64,000 bases of DNA, from assembly GCA_028583605.1 (NCBI GenBank), contig CM053328.1, positions 3,593,065-3,657,064 of the forward strand, in the 5' to 3' direction. The translations under genes and the position numbers were made by a program. Origin of the DNA: Dastarcus helophoroides. Its lineage: Eukaryota; Arthropoda; Insecta; Coleoptera; Bothrideridae. The notes under the pieces are model-generated. The model worked only from the letters and a program-made list of their open reading frames with translations, had not been told where the DNA came from and ran no database searches. Of this stretch, positions 3,395 through 62,867 are shown piece after piece; the first letter of the stretch is position 1, and each line of letters starts with the position of its first letter.

Positions 3395-3440
3395 AATTAT
3401 TTTCTCTCTTACGTTGTACATCATTGTGTTACCAATAATA

Positions 3441-3674
3441 AATTGATATACAAAACTTGTCTCCTGAAATCAAGAAAGATTAAAAAACACAACAAACGTT
3501 ACTCTAACTCGTTTCGACGGCCAAGCTGGCAGGTATCTCTCTAAATATGACAGCTTGGCCATCGAAACGCGTTAGAGCAATGTTTGTTGCGTTTTTTAAT
3601 ATTTCTTGGTTTCAGGGGACAAGTTCTGTATTTCAATTTTTGAAGATAACCAAGGACCAGTCTGTTCCACCAAA
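3441..3674. mobile_element. Foldback MITE 'F1', copy 1
   Basis: Two long arms are near reverse complements. The left carries CTCCTGAAATCAAGAAAGAT, TAAAAAACACAACAAACGTT and a GTTTCGACGGCCAAGCTG box. The right carries CAGCTTGGCCATCGAAACGC, then the matching TTTTTTAATATTTCTTGG and CAGGGGACAAG. The right tip AACCAAGGACCAGTCTGTTC is the mirror of the left tip of the copy at 25908. No coding frame is present. Other copies lie near 25908, 26427, 32684, 51545 and 54016. Inference: a palindromic non-autonomous DNA transposon of unknown superfamily. Confidence 0.7.
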
Positions 3675-3680
3675 CAATAA

Positions 3681-3745
3681 TAAATTTACATCGCACGGAA
3701 TTTTGATGCTTCATTCTCCACATTAGGCAAACATCTTGTAATATT
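3681..3745 (+). repeat. Dispersed repeat 'R3', copy 2 (partial)
   Basis: Contains TTTACATCGCACGGAATTTT, GATGCTTCATTCTCCACATT and AAACATCTTG in the same order as the R3 copy at 3311. It sits directly beyond the right tip of foldback MITE F1. Confidence 0.5.
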
Positions 3746-17427: not shown

Positions 17428-17684
17428 TGTTACGGGGCTTATCGGTTCTAAATGATTATTAAACATTTGCTGCATAATACCCACTTTATTACCAAATTAA
17501 ACTCGGAACACTACAACTGAACAATGAACTCACGTATTGACGTCTAACTATTAACTCACTAAGTATACGGTCTAACTGACTGCCTGACTCTAACTGACTC
17601 AAGGGAAAGGCGACTGCCTTATATAGTTTTGGCTCCCAGATTCTAGAAAAATCTCGCAGATAAAGCTTATCGTTTTACTTCTTT
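17428..17684 (-). mobile_element. LTR-like sequence, minus strand, full copy
   Basis: It is missing from the related repeat copy at 28.5 kb, so it is an insertion or replacement. Read on the minus strand it has a TATATAAGGC box (around 17611-17626), an AATAAA signal (17485-17490) and ends CCCCGTAACA at 17428, the order U3-R-U5 of a long terminal repeat. The + strand accordingly begins TGTTACGGGG. The opposite terminus is unclear, and I see no internal retrotransposon genes, so a solo LTR or fragment is most likely. A partial second copy follows at 17781. Confidence 0.45.
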
Positions 17685-18047
17685 ATATATTAATTGGGGT
17701 GCAATTTTTTAATGAGAAGTACTCAACGTCACGAAAAATTATGGAAGTGAACAAAGATGTCTAAAGTTTGGAAAACACTGAACTGAACAATGAACTCACT
17801 TATTGACGTCTAACTACTAACTCACTAAGTATACGGTCTAACTGACTGCCTGACTCTAACTGACTCGAGGGAAAGGCGACTGCCTTATATAGTTTTGGCT
17901 CCCAGGTTCTAGAAATATCCCGCAGATAAAGCTTATCGTTTTCCTCCTTTATATATTAATTGGGGTGCAATTTTTCAATGAGAAGTACTCAACGTCACGA
18001 AAAATTATGGGAAGTGTACACAGATGTCAAAAGTTTGGAAAACACTA
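17515..18047. repeat. Tandem duplication, two units of about 266 bp
   Basis: Unit 1 is 17515-17779 and unit 2 is 17781-18047, differing by scattered substitutions and 1-bp indels. Each contains part of the LTR-like sequence with its TATA box plus the right part of repeat R2 (TTATATATTAATTGGGGTGC ... TACTCAACGTCACGAAAAAT ... GTTTGGAAAACACT). Because both components are inside the unit, the duplication happened after the LTR-like insertion. Confidence 0.85.
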
Positions 18048-18985: not shown

Positions 18986-19471
18986 AAACTTGAGCGTTGA
19001 GCGATTTTTGATAGGAGTGGTTTCCTGTCGCTATCACGCTAATTTCCTTAGAGCATGTTGCTAAGGCATAATGGTGACACGTGACGATAACACAAAACCA
19101 AGTTTACCCTCATACCCAAAAATCGTTCAAACGCGCCTAAAGAAGTTTTCAAAATTTCCGAAAAACCCTGCATTGGGCCACAAAAACCTGTACAGGTATA
19201 GGCTTTAAATGCACAGACCACATTTATTAGATTCGAAGTTTGGAAACCAAAGGCTGGCTTCGTTCGATCTTATTAGATCTCGTCAGTTTGGTGTATCCAA
19301 CTCGAATGCCGACTGTTTTTTTTTTGTAAAGAAGGGGAAAATCCTTACGGACATCTAGCAAGATAACCCTAAATAGTGTCGGACTTCCGTTCAAACTACG
19401 GGTACCAACTAAAAACCCCTACTTCTTGGCTCCCAATCCCTCCGTCTGAACAGTACAAAAGTTCTGGAGCA

Positions 19472-20352
19472 CTATTGTAAGTTGTTTTGCGTCAAACATA
19501 AGAAACAAACAAAACAGAATGAAAGACGCAGCCTAGAGGACCACCCTTGGTGTCCTAATCTTGGTTGGGATGTCTGGATCGTAATCCACTGCCTGTTGGG
19601 ATGCGTTTCTGCTCTCACCATCACCCTAGAATTAATTTCTCTAAGAAAATCCCTTACCAAAGGTAATTCAGCTTCCCTATGGAGTTTATTGCTTCTTGCA
19701 AACCATGGAGCGTCCATGGCTTATCTTAGAAAGACGTTCTGGAACACCTCGAGTTTCTTCATCTGATTATCCGTCGCCTGTGACCAAGCTACAGATGCGT
19801 AGGTCTTTGGTGGTCTTTGATTGATGTGTATAGTAACATTTTAAGTCCAATGGACAGATAACTATTTCTACCAATCATCGCTTGCAGCAGTCCCTTCAGC
19901 ATTTTGGCTTTGGACATTGCATAATCGATGTGTGCCTGAAATATAAGTCTTTTGTCAAGAATTACACCTAGATATTTTGCCTGAAATCTCCAGTCGACGT
20001 TTTGCCCATGAACATTTACATGTCCATATGGTTGGAGTCTTCTTCGGGTGAAAAAGACTGCTTGGGTCTTGTCTGCGTTGACTTGGGTCTTGTCTGCGTT
20101 GACTTGGGTCTTGTCTGCGTTGACTTGAATTCTCCATTGACCGAAGAAATCTAGTAGACTGTCTGTTGCCCCCTGAAGTCGTCTAATGACCAACTCTGGA
20201 CTGTAAGAGTACGCCACCAAAGCTATGTCGTCTGCATAAGTTGCCAATAAGGTGTGGTCGATTGTTGAATTGATTCTTGGTCCGCTGTGAACAAAGAATA
20301 CAGTAGAGGTGACAAGGCAGAACCTTGAGGTACCCCATACTATAGCCTAAAC
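19472..20352 (-). pseudogene. LINE ORF2 pseudogene, RT motifs GVPQGS/YADD to C-terminus
   Basis: Read on the minus strand from 20345 the peptide contains GVPQGSALSPLLYSLFTAD (RT motif 4). A frameshift then moves to the frame with TYADDIALVAYS (catalytic motif 5, from 20247) and later KYLGVILDKRLIFQAHID (thumb region). After another interruption near 19790 it resumes as TYASVAWSQATDNQMKKLE and DAPWFARSNKLHREAELPLV, typical of the Jockey C-terminus. A small in-frame triplication of VNADKTQ lies at about 20060-20125 (a 21-bp tandem repeat). The Asp pair of YADD is intact, but frameshifts make the gene non-functional. Confidence 0.8.
20060..20125. repeat. 21-bp tandem triplication inside LINE ORF2
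   Basis: The 21-bp phrase containing TTGGGTCTTGTCTGCGTTGA is present three times in tandem, encoding VNADKTQ repeats in the minus-strand RT frame. This is a local expansion, since homologous LINE proteins normally have a single NADKTQ-like motif at this point. Confidence 0.8.
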
Positions 20353-20365
20353 TGGTTTGATAGTT
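20353..20365 (+). other. Target-site duplication, left copy
   Basis: TGGTTTGATAGTT is identical to 21010-21022 and brackets the 644-bp insertion. The LINE protein frame can be followed up to both copies, which fixes this as the insertion scar. Confidence 0.85.
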
Positions 20366-20440
20366 ACGCCGAGGACGTTTGTATCTATGGATGTTGCGAT
20401 GCAACCCGTGATACAAGCTTTGCCTCATCTACGTGAACTT

Positions 20441-20494
20441 TGCAATTGCAGTCTAATTTTCATTAGATTCTAATGAAATTAGATTTCAATTGCA
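20441..20494 (+). other. Long hairpin in terminal repeat copy 1
   Basis: TGCAATTGCAGTCTAATTTT with CATTAGA faces TCTAATGAAATTAGATTTCA with ATTGCA, an imperfect stem of about 26 pairs with almost no loop. The same structure is at 20907-20960. Confidence 0.75.
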
Positions 20495-20504
20495 TCGTAA
20501 TAAA

Positions 20505-20528
20505 CTTGTATATATTCGTATATACAAG
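20505..20528 (+). other. UUCG-capped hairpin, copy 1
   Basis: CTTGTATATA-TTCG-TATATACAAG: ten perfect base pairs closed by a TTCG (UUCG in RNA) tetraloop. It is identical at 20971-20994 in the second terminal repeat. Confidence 0.85.
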
Positions 20529-20676
20529 GCTTATTATCTCAGCAGAGAGTAATGCTTCAATTAGCATGTAGCGAGAATGTTTGCGTAATAAACAGTTAAA
20601 AGTCAGTTACAAGTCACCCAATGGAGGTTTGCTCTCTTGGATACTTATACGACTGACTAACGGCTTTAAATTGGAA

Positions 20677-20751
20677 GTGTGTACAACCACCGTACCATGC
20701 TGATGAGGCCAAGGAAGGTCGAAACTAATCTATGGTTGCGGTTGTACATAT
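20677..20751 (+). ncRNA. Type I hammerhead ribozyme, minimal stem III
   Basis: The conserved core is complete. CUGAUGA lies at 20700-20706. Stem II is GGCC/GGUC with loop AAGGAA, and GAAA follows at 20721-20724. The cleavage triplet is AUC, with the predicted cut after C20730. Stem I is closed by ACCAUG (20694-20699) with UAUGGU (20731-20736), then an asymmetric internal loop, then UGUACAACC (20680-20688) with GGUUGUACA (20740-20748), extendable by wobble pairs. Stem III is only about one pair (A20724-U20729), as reported for hammerheads of Penelope-like elements and animal retrozymes, which usually act best as dimers. In life it would process RNA of the host element into unit-length pieces. 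Activity of this copy is inferred, not shown. Confidence 0.82.
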
Positions 20752-20831
20752 TTTCAATTTTAAGCACGTTTAACTGTTTAATTACAGAACATTTAATTGG
20801 TCATTTGTCAAAACTAGATGAAAGTAAAGTC

Positions 20832-21009
20832 ACGCCGAGGACGTTTGTATCTATGGATGTTGCGATGCAACCCGTGATACAAGCTTTGCCTCATCTACGT
20901 GAACTTTGCAATTGCAGTCTAATTTTCATTAGATTCTAATGAAATTGGATTTCAATTGCATCGTAATAAACTTGTATATATTCGTATATACAAGGCTTAT
21001 TTATTATCT
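20832..21009 (+). repeat. Terminal repeat of retrozyme-like element, copy 2
   Basis: Second, partial copy of the 466-bp unit. It stops before the hammerhead would recur, so only one ribozyme is present. It includes the long hairpin (20907-20960) and the UUCG hairpin (20971-20994). Confidence 0.9.
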
Positions 21010-21022
21010 TGGTTTGATAGTT
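21010..21022 (+). other. Target-site duplication, right copy
   Basis: TGGTTTGATAGTT, identical to 20353-20365. Confidence 0.85.
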
Positions 21023-21023
21023 C

Positions 21024-21490
21024 CTATCCCACCGTTGCTCTGAATGAGCCCTGGTCCAAGAACGAGCTTACCATTTGAACTATCCTTAGAGGTGTTCCAA
21101 ACTGGTGCACCTTATAGGCTAGTCCTTGGTGCCAAACTGTGTCAAAATGCCTTGGATATATCAAGAAAATAACTCCAACTGCTTGGTTCCAGTTCACGTG
21201 TTGAGTGATTGTTTCAACCACTCTCAGCAGTTGGTCTGAGGTAGAGTGCATAGGAAACCCAAATTTTTCCTTGGGAATGACGTCGCAATCGCTGATGATA
21301 TTCTGCAGACGTTTCCTCAAAATCCTTCCCGGCACCTTACCCAAGTTGAATAAGAGGCTGATTGGCGTGTAATTTTGAGAAAATTTCCCATCCTTAACTG
21401 GCCTAGGAATGAAAATAACGTTTGCAGACTTCCACCTTGTGGGAAATACCAGTACTTAAACATGGAATTGAACTATTGCTCTCAAAGTAT
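21024..21490 (-). pseudogene. LINE ORF2 pseudogene, N-terminal reverse transcriptase part
   Basis: On the minus strand this reads, in order, FPTRWKSANVIFIPRP, NYTPISLLFNLGKVPGRIL, the IPKEKFGFPMHSTSDQLLRV segment (RT motif 2 region), and VIFLIYPRHFDTVWHQGLAY. The last corresponds to the first catalytic motif (usual pattern FLDVSKAFDxVWH). Here the first catalytic aspartate of that motif is replaced (LIYPRHFD), which adds to the evidence of decay. A stop interrupts the frame near 21440. The segment ends at the retrozyme insertion; downstream motifs are at 19472-20352. Confidence 0.8.
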
Positions 21491-21664
21491 TTGACAGCTT
21501 GGTTCGAAGTTTGGAAACCAAAGACTGGCTTCGTTCGATCTTAATAGATCTCGTCAGTTTGGTGTATCCAACTCGAATGCCAACTGATGTTCCGGAAAAT
21601 AAATACTATAGAATCAATTAATTTCGTGTGACTCCTTGTACCCCGCCACCTATTGGTCCATAGA

Positions 21665-22187: not shown

Positions 22188-23329
<1,142 letters not shown>

Positions 23330-25907: not shown

Positions 25908-26126
25908 TTTGATGGAACGGACTGGTCCTTGGTTATCTTCAAAAATTGAAACACAGAACTTGTCCCCTGAAACCAAGAAAGATTAAAAAACACAACAAAG
26001 GTTGCTCTAACGCGTTTCGACAGCCAAGCTGTCATCTTCAGAGGGAAACTTTCTCTCTCGTTAGAGCAACCTTTGTTGTGTTTTTTAATCTTTCTTGGTT
26101 TTAGGGGACAAGTTCTGTGTTTCAAC
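25908..26126. mobile_element. Foldback MITE 'F1', copy 2
   Basis: The left tip GGAACGGACTGGTCCTTGG is followed by GTCCCCTGAAACCAAGAAAG, AAAAAACACAACAAAGGTTG and CGTTTCGACAGCCAAGCTGT. The right arm returns from CGTTAGAGCAACCTTTGTTG to TAGGGGACAAGTTCTGTG. The right arm lacks the outermost tip present on the left. No coding frame. Confidence 0.75.
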
Positions 26127-26426: not shown

Positions 26427-26618
26427 GAAACCAAGAAAGATTTAAAAGTACAACAAAGGTTGCTCTAACACGTTTCGACAGCCAAACTGTCATCTTCAGA
26501 GAGTATCTTTTTGAAGAAGCGTTAGAGCAATATATGTTCCATTTTTTCTTTGTTGGTTTCAGGGGACAAGATTTGTATTTCAATTTTTGAAGATAACCAA
26601 AAACCAAATTCCACCAAA
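26427..26618. mobile_element. Foldback MITE 'F1', copy 3 (degenerate)
   Basis: Shows GAAACCAAGAAAGATTTAAA, CGTTTCGACAGCCAAACTGT, GCGTTAGAGCAATATATGTT, TTTCAGGGGACAAG and a right tip AAGATAACCAAAAACC ... CCACCAAA. The left tip is missing. Confidence 0.7.
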
Positions 26619-26785
26619 TTATGTTAAAGTTATAAACAAGTTATGAATACAAAAACATTCAAAATTTTAATAAACAAACCCAATTCTTCAAAAAGTAAGT
26701 CGAGATTTAAAACAAAAAGTCGAAATTTTGAGTCAGTTAAAATTCTCAAACAGTAAAACTAGAAATTTGTTTAGCGATAGTTTTT

Positions 26786-27022
26786 CTATAGACCAATAGG
26801 TGGCGGTAGTATTAAGCGTCACACGGGCGACGTCTGCTGATTCTTTAGTATTTACTTACTGGAACATTTGTTGGCATTCGAAACTGACAAGATCTAATAA
26901 GATCGAACGAAGTCAGTCTTTGGTTTCCAAACTTGGATATACCAACGTGATGAAATTTAACAAAATCGAAACCGGTCTTTGGTTTCCAAACTTCGAATCT
27001 AATAAATGTTCAAGACTCCATT
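26786..27022. mobile_element. CACAGACCA-family MITE, longest uninterrupted copy
   Basis: Reading left to right: AGACCAATAGGTGGCGG, GTCACACGGGCGACG, TTTAGTATTTACTTACTGGA, GTTGGCATTCG, ATCTAATAAGATCGAACGAA, GTCAGTCTTTGGTTTCCAAA, a second diverged GGTCTTTGGTTTCCAAACTT, then CGAATCTAATAAATGTTCAA and CCATTGGTGGTATGTGC. It is the reverse of the element at 19211-21664 without the LINE. The two TTTGGTTTCCAAACTT phrases suggest internal duplication. Confidence 0.6.
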
Positions 27023-28354: not shown

Positions 28355-28651
28355 ATCACTAGGGGTGTGGTGCAGCGCGTACCCCCGCGGCTTCAGATGA
28401 CTTAACGATTGTTTGAATCGACGTAACAAAACCAACTTAATTAGCTTGCACAGGTTTAAAGAGTTCGCGCCAGATTGCAGAATGATGTAATGTTCAAATT
28501 CGTTGATACATTTAGCCAAACCAACAGACAGACAAACACACTTCCTCATTTATATATTAATTAGAATGCGATTTTTTAACGAGAGGTACTCAACGTCACG
28601 AAAAATATTGGAAGGGATACACATATGTCGAAAATTTGGAAAACACTATTC
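28355..28651 (+). repeat. Dispersed repeat 'R2', copy without LTR-like insert
   Basis: 28390-28506 matches 17310-17427, and 28546-28648 matches the right part of the 266-bp tandem units (TTATATATTAATTAGAATGC, TACTCAACGTCACGAAAAAT, TTTGGAAAACACT). The intervening 40 bp (ACCAACAGACAGACAAACAC) differ from the 17-kb copies, where the LTR-like sequence sits. This is the 'empty' comparator. Confidence 0.65.
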
Positions 28652-32683: not shown

Positions 32684-32850
32684 TTAAAAAACACAACAAA
32701 CGTTGCTTTAACTCGTCTCGATAGTCAAACTATCATCTACACTCTGAAGGTGATAGCTTGGCTATCGAAATGCGTTAGTTAACAACCTTTGTTGTGTTTT
32801 TTAAACTTTCTTGATTTAAGAGTTTAAGAGGAGAAGATTTATATTTCAAC
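32684..32850. mobile_element. Foldback MITE 'F1', copy 4, at the end of array Y1
   Basis: TTAAAAAACACAACAAACGT and GTCTCGATAGTCAAACTATC on the left arm, GATAGCTTGGCTATCGAAAT and ACAACCTTTGTTGTGTTTTT on the right arm. The outer tips are eroded. It begins exactly where the pyrimidine tract stops. Confidence 0.65.
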
Positions 32851-51544: not shown

Positions 51545-51832
51545 AAATCTTGTCCCCTGAAACCAAGAAAGGTTAAAAAACATAAAAAGGTTGCACTAAC
51601 GCATTTCGATAGCCAAGCTATCATCTTCAGAGCGATACTCTCTGAAACGCGAAAAACACAAAAAGCTTGGCTCTAACGCGTTTCAGAGAGTATCGCTCTG
51701 AACATGATAGCTTGGCTATCGAAATGTGTTAGTGCAACCTTTGTTGTGTTTTTTAATCTTTCTTGGTTCCAGGGGACAAGATTTGTATTCCAATTTTTAA
51801 AGATAACCAAGGACCAGTCCGTCGCACCAAAA
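51545..51832. mobile_element. Foldback MITE 'F1', copy 5, with an inner palindrome
   Basis: Outer arms as in other copies: GTCCCCTGAAACCAAGAAAG on the left, CTTTCTTGGTTCCAGGGGAC on the right, and a right tip AACCAAGGACCAGTCCGTC. Inside, a further perfect inverted repeat of at least 20 bp (51632-51651 and 51677-51696, GCGATACTCTCTGAAACGCG and its complement) surrounds AAAAACACAAAAAGCTTGGC. The centre therefore contains a nested palindrome, perhaps from an internal rearrangement. Confidence 0.75.
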
Positions 51833-52139
51833 AATAAAAATGTAAATTTAAAAAAAAAATTCGAAATTATCAATCAAAATGAGATTTGAAAAAATCGAAA
51901 TTTTATAAAAAAAATTGAATTTCTAGAATTTCGAAATATCTCCGAGATATCCGAAATCTTGAAAACATGTCGACATTTTAAAAAACATGTCGAAATTATT
52001 ATAATTATTATAAATTTAAATTTTATAAAACATCTTACTTTCTGGAGTTAAATTTTGAAGCAATGTCGATATTTTAAAAGTCAAAACTTAAAAAAAGTTA
52101 GTAAAAGGTTAAGTTTTACTGGAATATAAATAGCCTAAA
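51833..52139 (+). repeat. A-rich satellite-like block
   Basis: Degenerate AAATTCGAAATT and CATGTCGACATTTTAAAAAA blocks, no clear unit. Confidence 0.5.
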
Positions 52140-59250: not shown

Positions 59251-60530
59251 ATTTATACTTCAGGGGGCACAACATACCCCACCTTGCGCTGACCTTGCAA
59301 GGATCAGATAGTTTTTGCAAACTTTAAATACAAAGTATTTCAGTAATGTCATTAAGTTTAATAGTAAAGAAAAATCTGTATTATACGATATAAGAGTCTG
59401 CTGACCTATGAAGTCGTAAACGATTTATTGCGACAGCACGGTATGGAGGGTTTATATTATAAGTTGACTTAATCTTTTTTTTAATGGGGAGATACAGATT
59501 TTTTTTTCGATTTTTCATCTTTACTAAATGTTTGCAATACCTGGTTAAAATAAATGACATTACGACAGAAACATCGTCTAGTTTTTATAATAAAGGTATA
59601 ACACAATATCGCTTTTACTCTAACTTGTTAATACGGTACCTTCAAAGAACCATTAGCAGCTGTCTCTTTTGTGTTTACAACAAATAACGACTTATATCAC
59701 TTTAGGCAACATGTGAAGGTCTGTAAATGTGCGTTTTAAACGACAAATTGATGAATTATTCCGAGTTTCCTTAAATCGTTTAATCAATTCGTGAATAAAT
59801 GTTTTAATTCATCATGATTAACATTCTCGAACAAAGTTACTCTTAATTGTTATTTGTTTAAGCAGCTGAATTGTTTTGTCTGTCATTCTACTAAATTACG
59901 CATACATTTGAAAAGCCTTCTAGATATTCTTGTTTAATGGTGGTAATAGTCCCAAGTTCTTCATCGCTTCATCCATAGATCATAATGTCTCGAACTAAGG
60001 CATAAGAATTTTTTGTTCGATTAACTTAATGAAGGTGGCCGATTTATGAAGCATGAACCTTTCATCGCAATGGGAGTGCCCCGTCCGTTAAATAATACCT
60101 TCCTCCATGGAAAATATTCTATAATAAACTTTAAATTATTCACATTAACTCGTACCTATTGTTCATTCGAAGTTACTTCCTCTGGTAATCATCACTTAAA
60201 ATGTTTTTAATTCGTTCAGTTTTGATTGACATTGCTAGTCGAAATTCAGTCGGCAAGGACTCATAGCAATTTCGAAATGAAAGAAATTTTGAAAAATAAA
60301 CAAGACAAAAGTTTTCAAGTTTACATTCAAAATGTGTCAATTTTTTTAAATTTAGATCAAAATTTCAAAAAAAAAATCTCGGGCAAGGTTTCCAAACCAT
60401 TTGTCAGATGTCCAATTAAATGTTCTTTAATTGAACAGTTAAACGTGCCAAAGTTGAAAATATTTACAACCACAGTCATAGACCTCTTCATCTGAGCATG
60501 GTACTATCAAGTAGTAGCTAGTAGCTAGTA
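59251..60530. other. Unique AT-rich spacer, no gene recognised
   Basis: No repeat, RNA gene or defended frame. The 89-codon frame at 60226-60495 is low-complexity in its middle and unlike any family I know. Confidence 0.5.
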
Positions 60531-61790: not shown

Positions 61791-62867
61791 GGTTTCTCTG
61801 AGGTAGGCATCTCAACCTGTTCTAATCTTCAAGCCTCTTGTTCTTATGATCTCCAGCATTCTTTCCTTGTTTTCCTCTTGGTTTCAGTGTCTTCGCTTGT
61901 TTGACTATTCTATTTTCATCCATTCTTTCGGTGTGCTGGTTCCAGTATTTTATTTTCAAGAGATCTAACTCCCATTGAGTTACTTGTTCTATTTCTACTT
62001 GGAAGATGTGCCAAAACTTCAAAAAACGTCTTCAACAAATATTTCTCGACGGAAATACATTCCCAATTCAATAATGATTCATTGTGGGTAGCTAGAAAGG
62101 ATTTTGAGGTTTTAATAATTGAATTATCGTCTTTCCCAAATATGCACTCGCCTAATCTAACACCGATTAGCGGAAACGAGCGCGCCCATCTCACGCATCT
62201 GACTTTCTACACCGACACTCGCTTTTAATTAAACTTAACAGCCGTTTATCTAATTGAGTGCTAATTACCGAATTAAAAAACGCTCTTTAATTGTAAATAC
62301 GAGCAACTAAAAATTAAAAGCCCCACCATCGGCCAAATTACAAACGAACGTTGCCCCAATCGAAAGCAGTCAAAAGCAGCCGCATGAATATGAAATACCG
62401 TGAGAAATGGTCTGAAAAATGCAACAGCCTGGACGGCCGTGCAATTATTGTGTCATTAGCATTTGCCCATCGGCTGAAAAAATTAAAACTGGCGGATTCC
62501 GGGAATGCCCCTGGGTTATTCGGAAACGAAATTGCGTCGGGCGTAATTTTTAGTCGGGAAACCGGGTTCTATTTTAAATAACCGACAAATTGGAAATTAT
62601 ACGAGGCATTTTGGGAAAGAATAATTCGCTTGAAGTTGACTAAATTGCGAAAAAAATCTGTAGTGCGACCAACAAAATCAATACTAACAAGGAAAGTGTA
62701 TCCGGGGCATGCCTTACTGATTATCTTTGTTTCGAAATATATTTATTTATTTCGAGTTTACGTCGAAATTAGCGATCCCCCCACCAAATTTGGACCACCA
62801 TAAAAAAATGTTTGAATCAATTTTGTGGTAAACTTAAAAAAGAGTTGCACCCAAAGGCATCTAGAGG
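61791..62867. other. Unique spacer island, no gene recognised
   Basis: 62200-62620 is comparatively complex, rich in TAATTA/TAATTG homeodomain-type core sites (for example TAATTAAAC, TGCTAATTACCG, CAATTATTG), and free of repeats. It could be a regulatory or deeply conserved non-coding element. A 76-codon frame at 62351-62581 has no motif. Confidence 0.45.

What the first reader, a model, noticed from the sequence alone, without database searches (positions are those of the whole stretch)
20366..21009. Hammerhead-bearing retrozyme/Penelope-like relic caught in a dead LINE
Seen: a 644-bp insertion made of 1.4 copies of a 466-bp non-coding unit, a complete hammerhead core (CUGAUGA, stem II, GAAA, cleavage after C20730), and an identical 13-bp duplication TGGTTTGATAGTT on both sides. 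Known: hammerheads with a minimal stem III mark Penelope-like elements and animal retrozymes, whose RNA is processed and may circularise. Inference: this is a retrozyme family of the host, or a pseudo-LTR remnant of a Penelope-like element. The LINE frame on both sides gives exact element borders, which are usually hard to define.
Basis: partly seen in the sequence, partly recalled or inferred. Interest (0 to 1): 0.87.

Follow-up and report, generated by a model that had tools for sequence, protein, structure and literature searches.

The report
Ribozyme retroelement moved the Penelope way
This is a small non-coding RNA parasite that carries a self-cutting ribozyme, and the mapped copies in its host genome bear the same insertion scars as a Penelope-type retroelement there, which points to the machinery that may move animal retrozymes.

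Summary
Window 20366-21009 is 1.38 copies of a 466-bp hammerhead unit with an exact 13-bp target duplication inside a decayed LINE. It belongs to a large retrozyme family: 1343 exact ribozyme cores in the 539-Mb host genome, 0 in reversed controls. The window copy is a one-armed member with changes in ribozyme stems II and III.

I mapped 69 loci; 42 are head-to-head inverted arms. In 38 of 42 one arm ends at site A and the other at site B; none is A/A or B/B; 4 have an unclassified end. 33 of the 38 have duplications of at least 10 bp, mostly 12-13. Units in both arms share variants, so one monomer sequence was copied repeatedly, most simply from an RNA circle. Both sites lie in or next to predicted hairpin loops.

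A Penelope-like family in this genome (RT plus GIY-YIG) looks alike: in six two-armed copies the arms end at two sites 25-39 nt apart, with a 12-bp duplication in the clearest case.

Inference: a Penelope-type enzyme copies the retrozyme RNA from both cut target strands. Cleavage, circularity and the enzyme's identity are not shown.

The parts
20353..20365 (.). Left copy of the 13-bp target-site duplication
   Evidence: exact direct repeat
20366..21009 (+). Retrozyme insertion, single plus-strand arm of 1.38 units, 3' end at site B
20366..20535 (+). First copy of the repeated part of the 466-bp unit (unit positions 102-271, position 1 = first base after the cleavage site)
   Evidence: 169/170 identical to 20832-21001
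20663..20765 (+). Extended stem I hairpin holding the hammerhead; fold energy z -7.2 against shuffles
   Evidence: inverted repeat I1
20682..20752 (+). Hammerhead ribozyme (type I layout, stem III of one A-U pair in this copy; commonest family stem III palindromic ACUAGU), cleavage after C20730
20806..20814 (+). Site A (unit positions 76-84): where one arm ends in 38 of 42 two-armed loci; in or next to the 7-nt loop of a predicted hairpin. Not an end of the window copy
20538..20544 (+). Site B in the first unit (unit positions 274-280): where the other arm ends in those loci; in or next to the loop of the predicted hairpin UCUCAGCAGAGA
20832..21009 (+). Second, partial copy; its 3' end at 21009 is site B, with a 4-nt TTAT duplication just before it
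   Evidence: alignment; ends listed
21010..21022 (.). Right copy of the 13-bp target-site duplication
   Evidence: exact direct repeat
19789..20346 (-). Host LINE relic, later part of the reverse transcriptase
   Evidence: RVT_1 25.3 bits, below the curated cut-off of 29.6
21024..21455 (-). Host LINE relic, earlier part of the reverse transcriptase
   Evidence: RVT_1 30.3 bits; 51.4 when continued across the junction
60400..60503 (-). Older relic of the same family; ribozyme core destroyed; homology stops at unit position 82, i.e. at site A
   Evidence: 72/84 identity, E 9.7e-22; nhmmer 60503-60400, E 9.6e-12

Best explanation
The insertion is a copy of a non-autonomous animal-type (non-LTR) retrozyme. 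Its 466-nt RNA is released from multimeric transcripts by the hammerhead and probably closed into a circle (inferred). A Penelope-type reverse transcriptase/endonuclease, supplied in trans, cuts both target strands about 12 bp apart, leaving two 3' ends. Each 3' end primes copying of the retrozyme RNA at the loop of a short hairpin: one strand starts at site A, the other at site B. Copying runs round the template one or more times. The two cDNA arms meet head to head, and filling in the cut gives the 12-13-bp duplication. The window copy is a single-arm product that started at site B. Shown here: family, unit, ends, arm pairing, duplications, shared variants, and matching anatomy of a Penelope-like family in the same genome. 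Inferred: cleavage, circle, the enzyme, and one start site per strand as the cause of the pairing.
For: Family size: 133 matches at the 40 scored of 1907 candidate places; 761 + 582 exact ribozyme cores, 0 in the reversed-pattern controls. Ribozyme: 94 of 154 complete ribozyme regions share one sequence, with GGCC/GGCC stem II and CUAGUC; Rfam HH9 matches at seven places in L042, 22.5 bits each. Pairing rule: 30 of 31 two-armed loci in the best-scoring 40 and 8 of 11 in the 29 pattern-ordered loci are A/B, 0 A/A, 0 B/B, 4 with an unclassified end. Duplications: 33 of the 38 A/B loci have at least 10 bp; over all 69 loci 38 do (one of these, L073, by its offsets looks spurious), against 3 of 400 mismatched flank pairs. 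One template sequence per insertion: at 17 family-polymorphic sites unit pairs disagree in 26 of 1353 same-arm and 14 of 1362 other-arm comparisons, against 36.6% between loci (also 85). Start sites at hairpin loops: probability of lying in an apical loop 0.58-0.98 at u78-84 and 0.97-0.98 at u277-280, mean over the unit 0.082. Penelope-like family: one open frame has RVT_1 and GIY-YIG, both over their cut-offs; in six two-armed copies (L080, L082, and places on C10, C5, C8, C3) the two arms end at two sites 25-39 nt apart by BLAST ends; duplication 12 bp exact at C5, 9 exact (12 with one mismatch) at C10. Literature: a Penelope enzyme cuts and extends both strands and starts inside a stem loop at two sites (PMC11167929, Main text section read whole); Penelope copies show head-to-head arms with an optional 31-bp tail on one arm (PMC3846280, passages).
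Against: No RNA data, no cleavage assay. Rfam scores stay below the gathering score, and in L042 the best Rfam matches are microRNA models lying on the palindromic centre, not the hammerhead. In vitro the Anolis Penelope enzyme showed no difference in start site between strands and did not need ribozyme cleavage (PMC11167929), so neither the strict A/B split nor the circle follows from that work. Shared variants would also be expected from a multimeric transcript of one young, uniform array; L040 has units of different sequence in one arm (21 of the 40 discordances). 27 of 69 loci, the window copy included, have one arm; the 9 of these in the best-scoring set show no hidden second arm. In the pattern-ordered loci 3 of 11 two-armed ones have an end that is neither A nor B. 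No sequence similarity was found between the unit and L085. The Penelope-like queries contained the longer 3' end, so the first arm of each such copy was selected to be the longer one; only the second arm was free. The second arms at L083 and at C4 do not reach a 3' site. As duplications only 9 bp at L080, 8 bp at L082 and 7 bp at L083 were found.
Confidence: 0.78

Rival explanations
1. Same retrozyme and same Penelope-type enzyme, but the template is an uncleaved multimeric transcript of a tandem locus, not a circle; the ribozyme is then dispensable for movement. (This shares every step with the best explanation except the circle, so the two confidences overlap.)
For: Anolis Penelope insertion in vitro does not need ribozyme cleavage (PMC11167929). 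Long arrays exist as sources (L042, about 4.5 units in one arm). L040 has mixed units. The window copy's weak stem III may cut poorly; its catalytic fold is close in energy to an inactive one (-17.9 against -18.6 kcal/mol).
Against: Unit pairs agree at polymorphic sites in 98% (same arm) and 99% (other arm) of comparisons; 94 of 154 ribozyme regions are identical, though these copies are young.
Confidence: 0.27
2. A LINE enzyme moved it, and the inverted arms are L1-style twin priming.
For: The animal retrozyme paper names LINEs as well as Penelope-like elements as possible helpers (PMC7229834 Discussion). Duplications of about 12-13 bp are in the usual LINE range (recalled).
Against: Twin priming would put the second arm's end at varying internal places (recalled); here both ends are fixed in 38 of 42 two-armed loci. 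The resident Penelope-like family shows similar pairing.
Confidence: 0.06
3. It is a remnant or deletion derivative of a Penelope-like element, its unit being a pseudo-LTR.
For: Hammerheads are known in Penelope pseudo-LTRs (PMC7761336, passages); a divergent unit-like sequence (68% over 244 nt) lies about 730 bp downstream of an endonuclease frame in L082. No full-length Penelope-like element of this genome was examined.
Against: No similarity between the unit and L085, and no strict hammerhead in L085 or L086/L082; the unit's longest frame (89 codons) is not unusual (108 of 1000 shuffles) and has no Pfam match; copies occur as arrays of the unit. The L082 case is more simply an older retrozyme insertion.
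Confidence: 0.08
4. Inverted arms arise by DNA-level fold-back or recombination of tandem DNA.
For: The unit contains palindromes, and at least one centre lies in such a stretch (L012, arms overlapping by 54 bp).
Against: 33 of 38 A/B structures are flanked by one duplication each, with different targets, arm lengths and centres but fixed outer ends.
Confidence: 0.03

Closest known systems
Metazoan non-LTR retrozymes (Cervera and de la Pena 2020, PMC7229834: abstract, passages, two sections)
   Same: Type I hammerhead in tandem non-coding repeats of low GC, dispersed in many copies, duplications longer than 4 bp, strongly self-paired unit
   Different: 466 nt instead of about 170-400; stem III near-minimal and palindromic; 42 of 69 mapped loci are head-to-head arms with two fixed ends, which the passages and sections I read do not describe
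Penelope-like elements, Penelope/Poseidon type (PMC3846280 passages; PMC11167929 Main text)
   Same: Head-to-head arms, two alternative 3' ends, copying that starts at a stem loop (here by predicted fold), tandem or partial tandem copies; duplications here are 76% AT against 69% in the flanks
   Different: No reverse transcriptase or endonuclease in the unit; the two sites are about 197 or 269 nt apart round the unit instead of 30-40; strict pairing of the two sites
Plant LTR retrozymes (PMC4918200, seen in search listing only; PMC7761336, passages)
   Same: Hammerhead retroelement, proposed circular intermediate
   Different: Type III hammerhead, LTRs and 4-bp duplications in plants; here type I layout, 12-13 bp
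Schistosoma W-elements with hammerheads (PMC8490949, passages)
   Same: Hammerhead-bearing tandem repeats with signs of mobility
   Different: The term head-to-head does not occur in that paper, and the passages I saw describe no two-ended anatomy

Membership tests
Metazoan non-LTR retrozyme | Type I hammerhead motif in the unit | tested here: met
   structural scan, 94 of 154 regions identical; Rfam HH9 matches below its gathering score
Metazoan non-LTR retrozyme | Tandem repeats of about 150-450 bp | tested here: inconclusive
   tandem yes, period 466; slightly above the published range
Metazoan non-LTR retrozyme | Low GC and no protein coding | tested here: met
   GC 0.365, longest frame not unusual, no Pfam match
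Metazoan non-LTR retrozyme | Target duplications longer than 4 bp | tested here: met
   12-13 bp mode
Metazoan non-LTR retrozyme | No LTR, primer-binding site or polypurine tract | not tested
   no search for a primer-binding site or polypurine tract was made; the terminal repeats of the window copy are part of a 466-bp tandem period
Metazoan non-LTR retrozyme | Expressed as linear and circular RNA; self-cleavage | not testable with these tools
   no RNA data
Penelope-like element | Single frame with RT and GIY-YIG endonuclease | tested here: not met
   longest frame of the insertion is 89 codons without a Pfam match; such a frame exists in L085 of the same genome
Penelope-type insertion mechanism (works like) | Head-to-head arms with two alternative 3' ends inside one duplication | tested here: met
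   not met by the window copy itself, which has one arm
Penelope-type insertion mechanism (works like) | Copying starts at a stem loop | tested here: met
   predicted folds of one unit only
L1-type LINE product | Fixed 3' tail on one side, variable inversion point on the other (recalled) | tested here: not met
   both outer ends fixed in 38 of 42 two-armed loci
LTR/TRIM element | 4-6-bp duplication | tested here: not met
   12-13 bp mode; 13 bp in the window

The most novel reading that the evidence does not exclude
A single RNA circle is held by a dimeric Penelope-type enzyme with one subunit at loop A and one at loop B. Each subunit is primed by one of the two cut target strands, and both copy the same circle by rolling round it. 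This would explain why all 38 classifiable pairs are A/B, why both arms carry the same variants, and why arms can be several units long.
Probability: 0.4. Interest if true: 0.87.

Novelty: new variant of a known kind. Interest (0 to 1): 0.74.

Why it matters
How animal retrozymes move is left open in what I read: PMC7229834 (Discussion) and PMC7761336 (passages) call Penelope-like elements a strong or likely candidate because of shared hammerheads, tandem copies and co-existence, and a 2024 review names LINEs or Penelope-like elements (PMC11722881, passages). Here 38 mapped insertions carry a specific, checkable signature that resembles that of a Penelope-like family of the same genome. That makes the question directly testable with one enzyme, one RNA and mapped start sites. 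The one-A-one-B rule would also constrain how Penelope enzymes use the two target strands; the in vitro work saw no strand difference.

Tried and rejected
Rfam at gathering threshold found nothing in the window; the family-type ribozyme scores better but still below threshold. The plain hammerhead text pattern is not significant in the window. Two weak collinear matches near the 60.4-kb relic (61957-61987 and 59962-59980) did not beat shuffles and are not claimed. The 89-codon frame in the unit is ordinary. Exact-pattern scans for the ribozyme (viral contigs; prokaryote genomes) and for a conserved stretch of the unit (viral contigs) found nothing. Simple pol III box patterns: none in the insertion. 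A second tandem repeat at 17507-18046 gave no hammerhead match in Rfam. A likeness of sites A and B to each other in sequence was seen by eye only and is not claimed. A fold of the Penelope-like 3' region is not used, because beyond the outer end it contains flanking DNA. Between the first and this version of the report I mended counts and wording against the calls; the only changed odds are those of the pseudo-LTR rival (0.06 to 0.08), because no full-length Penelope-like element was examined.

Full report
What was checked. The insertion, the 13-bp duplication, the 466-bp period and the LINE on both sides are as described. Leaving out the insertion and one duplication gives one continuous reverse transcriptase match (51.4 bits) where each side alone gave a partial one (30.3 and 25.3 bits). 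The hammerhead is there by structure: one strict motif in the window, and 1 of 100 shuffled windows with any. Rfam's best match is HH9, under its gathering score.

The unit. The 466-nt strand folds far better than shuffles (-160.1 against -102.5 +/- 5.8 kcal/mol); the opposite strand does too (-141.7 against -92.2 +/- 6.0), so this is not strand evidence. 2 of 23 other 466-nt slices of the window fold about as strongly. I number the unit from the first base after the cleavage site (u1 = window 20731).

The family. After several unanswered tries the host genome could be searched. The window lies in a 538.9-Mb assembly of 50 contigs. A 618-bp query gave 133 matches at the 40 scored of 1907 candidate places. 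Exact ribozyme cores number 761 for a CTGATGA pattern and 582 for a stricter CTGACGA pattern, none in the reversed controls. There are 154 complete ribozyme regions in 65 of 69 loci, and 94 share one sequence. That type has stem II GGCC/GGCC and GAAACUAGUC, so stem III is a palindrome, as is needed for dimer-forming hammerheads in eukaryotic mobile elements (PMC6466107, passages). The 29 pattern-ordered loci were chosen by an intact core, so their cores are not independent evidence. The window copy differs from the commonest type at a variable core position, in stem II and in stem III.

The anatomy. I mapped the 40 best-scoring loci (the window's included) and 29 loci taken in order along contig 1 by the ribozyme pattern (30 fetched, one duplicate dropped). 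42 of 69 are two arms, minus then plus, so that both 3' ends point outward. I class outer ends at u70-95 as site A and at u265-292 as site B. In 38 of 42 two-armed loci one end is A and the other B (30 of 31 and 8 of 11 in the two sets); in 4 one end is neither; A/A and B/B do not occur. If A and B were chosen independently and evenly, 38 of 38 would have a probability of about 4e-12; this simple figure assumes independent insertions, which their different flanks and arm lengths support. Among the 27 one-armed loci 17 end at A, 6 at B (the window copy included) and 4 elsewhere. A hidden second arm was looked for in the 9 one-armed loci of the best-scoring set and not found.

Duplications and targets. 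33 of the 38 A/B loci have an exact flanking duplication of at least 10 bp, 15 of them 12 and 9 of them 13. For all 69 loci 38 have 10 or more, against 3 of 400 mismatched flank pairs. Outside the duplication on the B side the first base is G in 19 of 33, against 15.5% G in the flanks. The exact start of each arm is blurred by bases shared with the target. The geometry, with each arm primed by one strand and the duplication between, is that of a cut with about 12-nt 3' overhangs; this is deduction.

Centres. The arms meet at scattered unit positions; in 24 of 38 A/B loci the BLAST ends of the arms overlap by one or more bases. No control was made for that overlap. Arms reach 2082 bp, about 4.5 units.

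One template sequence per insertion. Unit pairs within an arm differ by 0.70 per 100 nt, across arms of one locus by 0.81, between loci by 3.35. At 17 sites polymorphic in the family, pairs disagree in 26 of 1353 within arms, 14 of 1362 across arms, and 36.6% between loci, with 46 informative loci. L040 is the main exception, with 21 of the 40 discordances. A circle copied more than once explains this simply; a uniform multimer is not excluded.

Start sites. In the predicted circular fold of a unit from L042, a 7-nt loop spans u78-84 and a 4-nt loop u277-280. Apart from a few outliers, the arm ends fall at about u76-84 (A) and u274-280 (B), so in these loops or within about three bases before them. 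Probabilities of lying in an apical loop, sampled from a linear fold, are 0.58-0.98 at u78-84 and 0.97-0.98 at u277-280, mean over the unit 0.082. Only one unit was folded this way; the commonest hairpin form occurs 110 (A) and 100 (B) times among the matched instances, which are young copies.

The Penelope-like family. GIY-YIG matches are plentiful (91 matches from 150 scored of 1070 candidates). L085 holds a stop-to-stop frame of 417 aa with RVT_1 and GIY-YIG. Its 3' region has 2117 and 2055 candidate places in two searches, 40 scored in each. In one search, 35 of 40 main rows end at query 768-776; the other 5 run on to 780-801 (one is L085 itself). Where a second, inverted arm reaches a 3' end, it stops earlier, by 25-39 nt by BLAST ends: L080 and L082, C10 and C5, C8 and C3. 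Because the queries contained the longer end, the first arm of each was selected to be the longer one; the second arm was free and was the shorter one in six of six. Two further second arms (L083, C4) do not reach a 3' end. The duplication is 12 bp at C5 and 9 bp exact (12 with one mismatch) at C10; at L080, L082 and L083 only 9, 8 and 7 bp were found. Published Penelope copies show head-to-head arms, one with a 31-bp tail (PMC3846280), and the tail lies between two start sites of copying (PMC11167929). No full-length member was examined, and no strict hammerhead was found in L085 or in L086/L082.

Conclusion. The window holds a one-armed copy of a retrozyme family whose mapped insertions look like products of Penelope-type, two-strand target-primed copying. 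The family is best filed as an animal retrozyme, a known kind. I did not find its insertion anatomy described in the listings of my searches or in the passages read; only open-access papers are held. Papers not held (for example those behind) may contain related observations.

Noticed in passing
22191-23327: A 1.1-kb (CTGG)n array, 97% matches, next to the LINE.
   Followed up: no
about 28000-64000: Long stretches with strong purine/pyrimidine skew: blocks of GAAGAA-like arrays that switch strand.
   Followed up: no
3440-3691, 25908-26125, 26427-26632, 32684-32849, 51549-51847: Dispersed, partly palindromic MITE-like repeat family, about 74-90% alike in the listed pairs.
   Followed up: no
19232-19315 and 21503-21586: 84-bp direct repeats (96%) flank the LINE relic; related sequence also lies at 26781-27009.
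   Followed up: no
17507-18046: 266-bp unit in two tandem copies (94%), single partial relative at 28542-28648; no hammerhead match in Rfam.
   Followed up: partly
L084 995-1467: A retrozyme copy lies directly against the endonuclease frame of a Penelope-like element, ending near site B; nested insertion or chimera.
   Followed up: partly
L040: A two-armed retrozyme locus whose units carry different variant sets, unlike most other loci; may show template switching or a multimeric source.
   Followed up: partly
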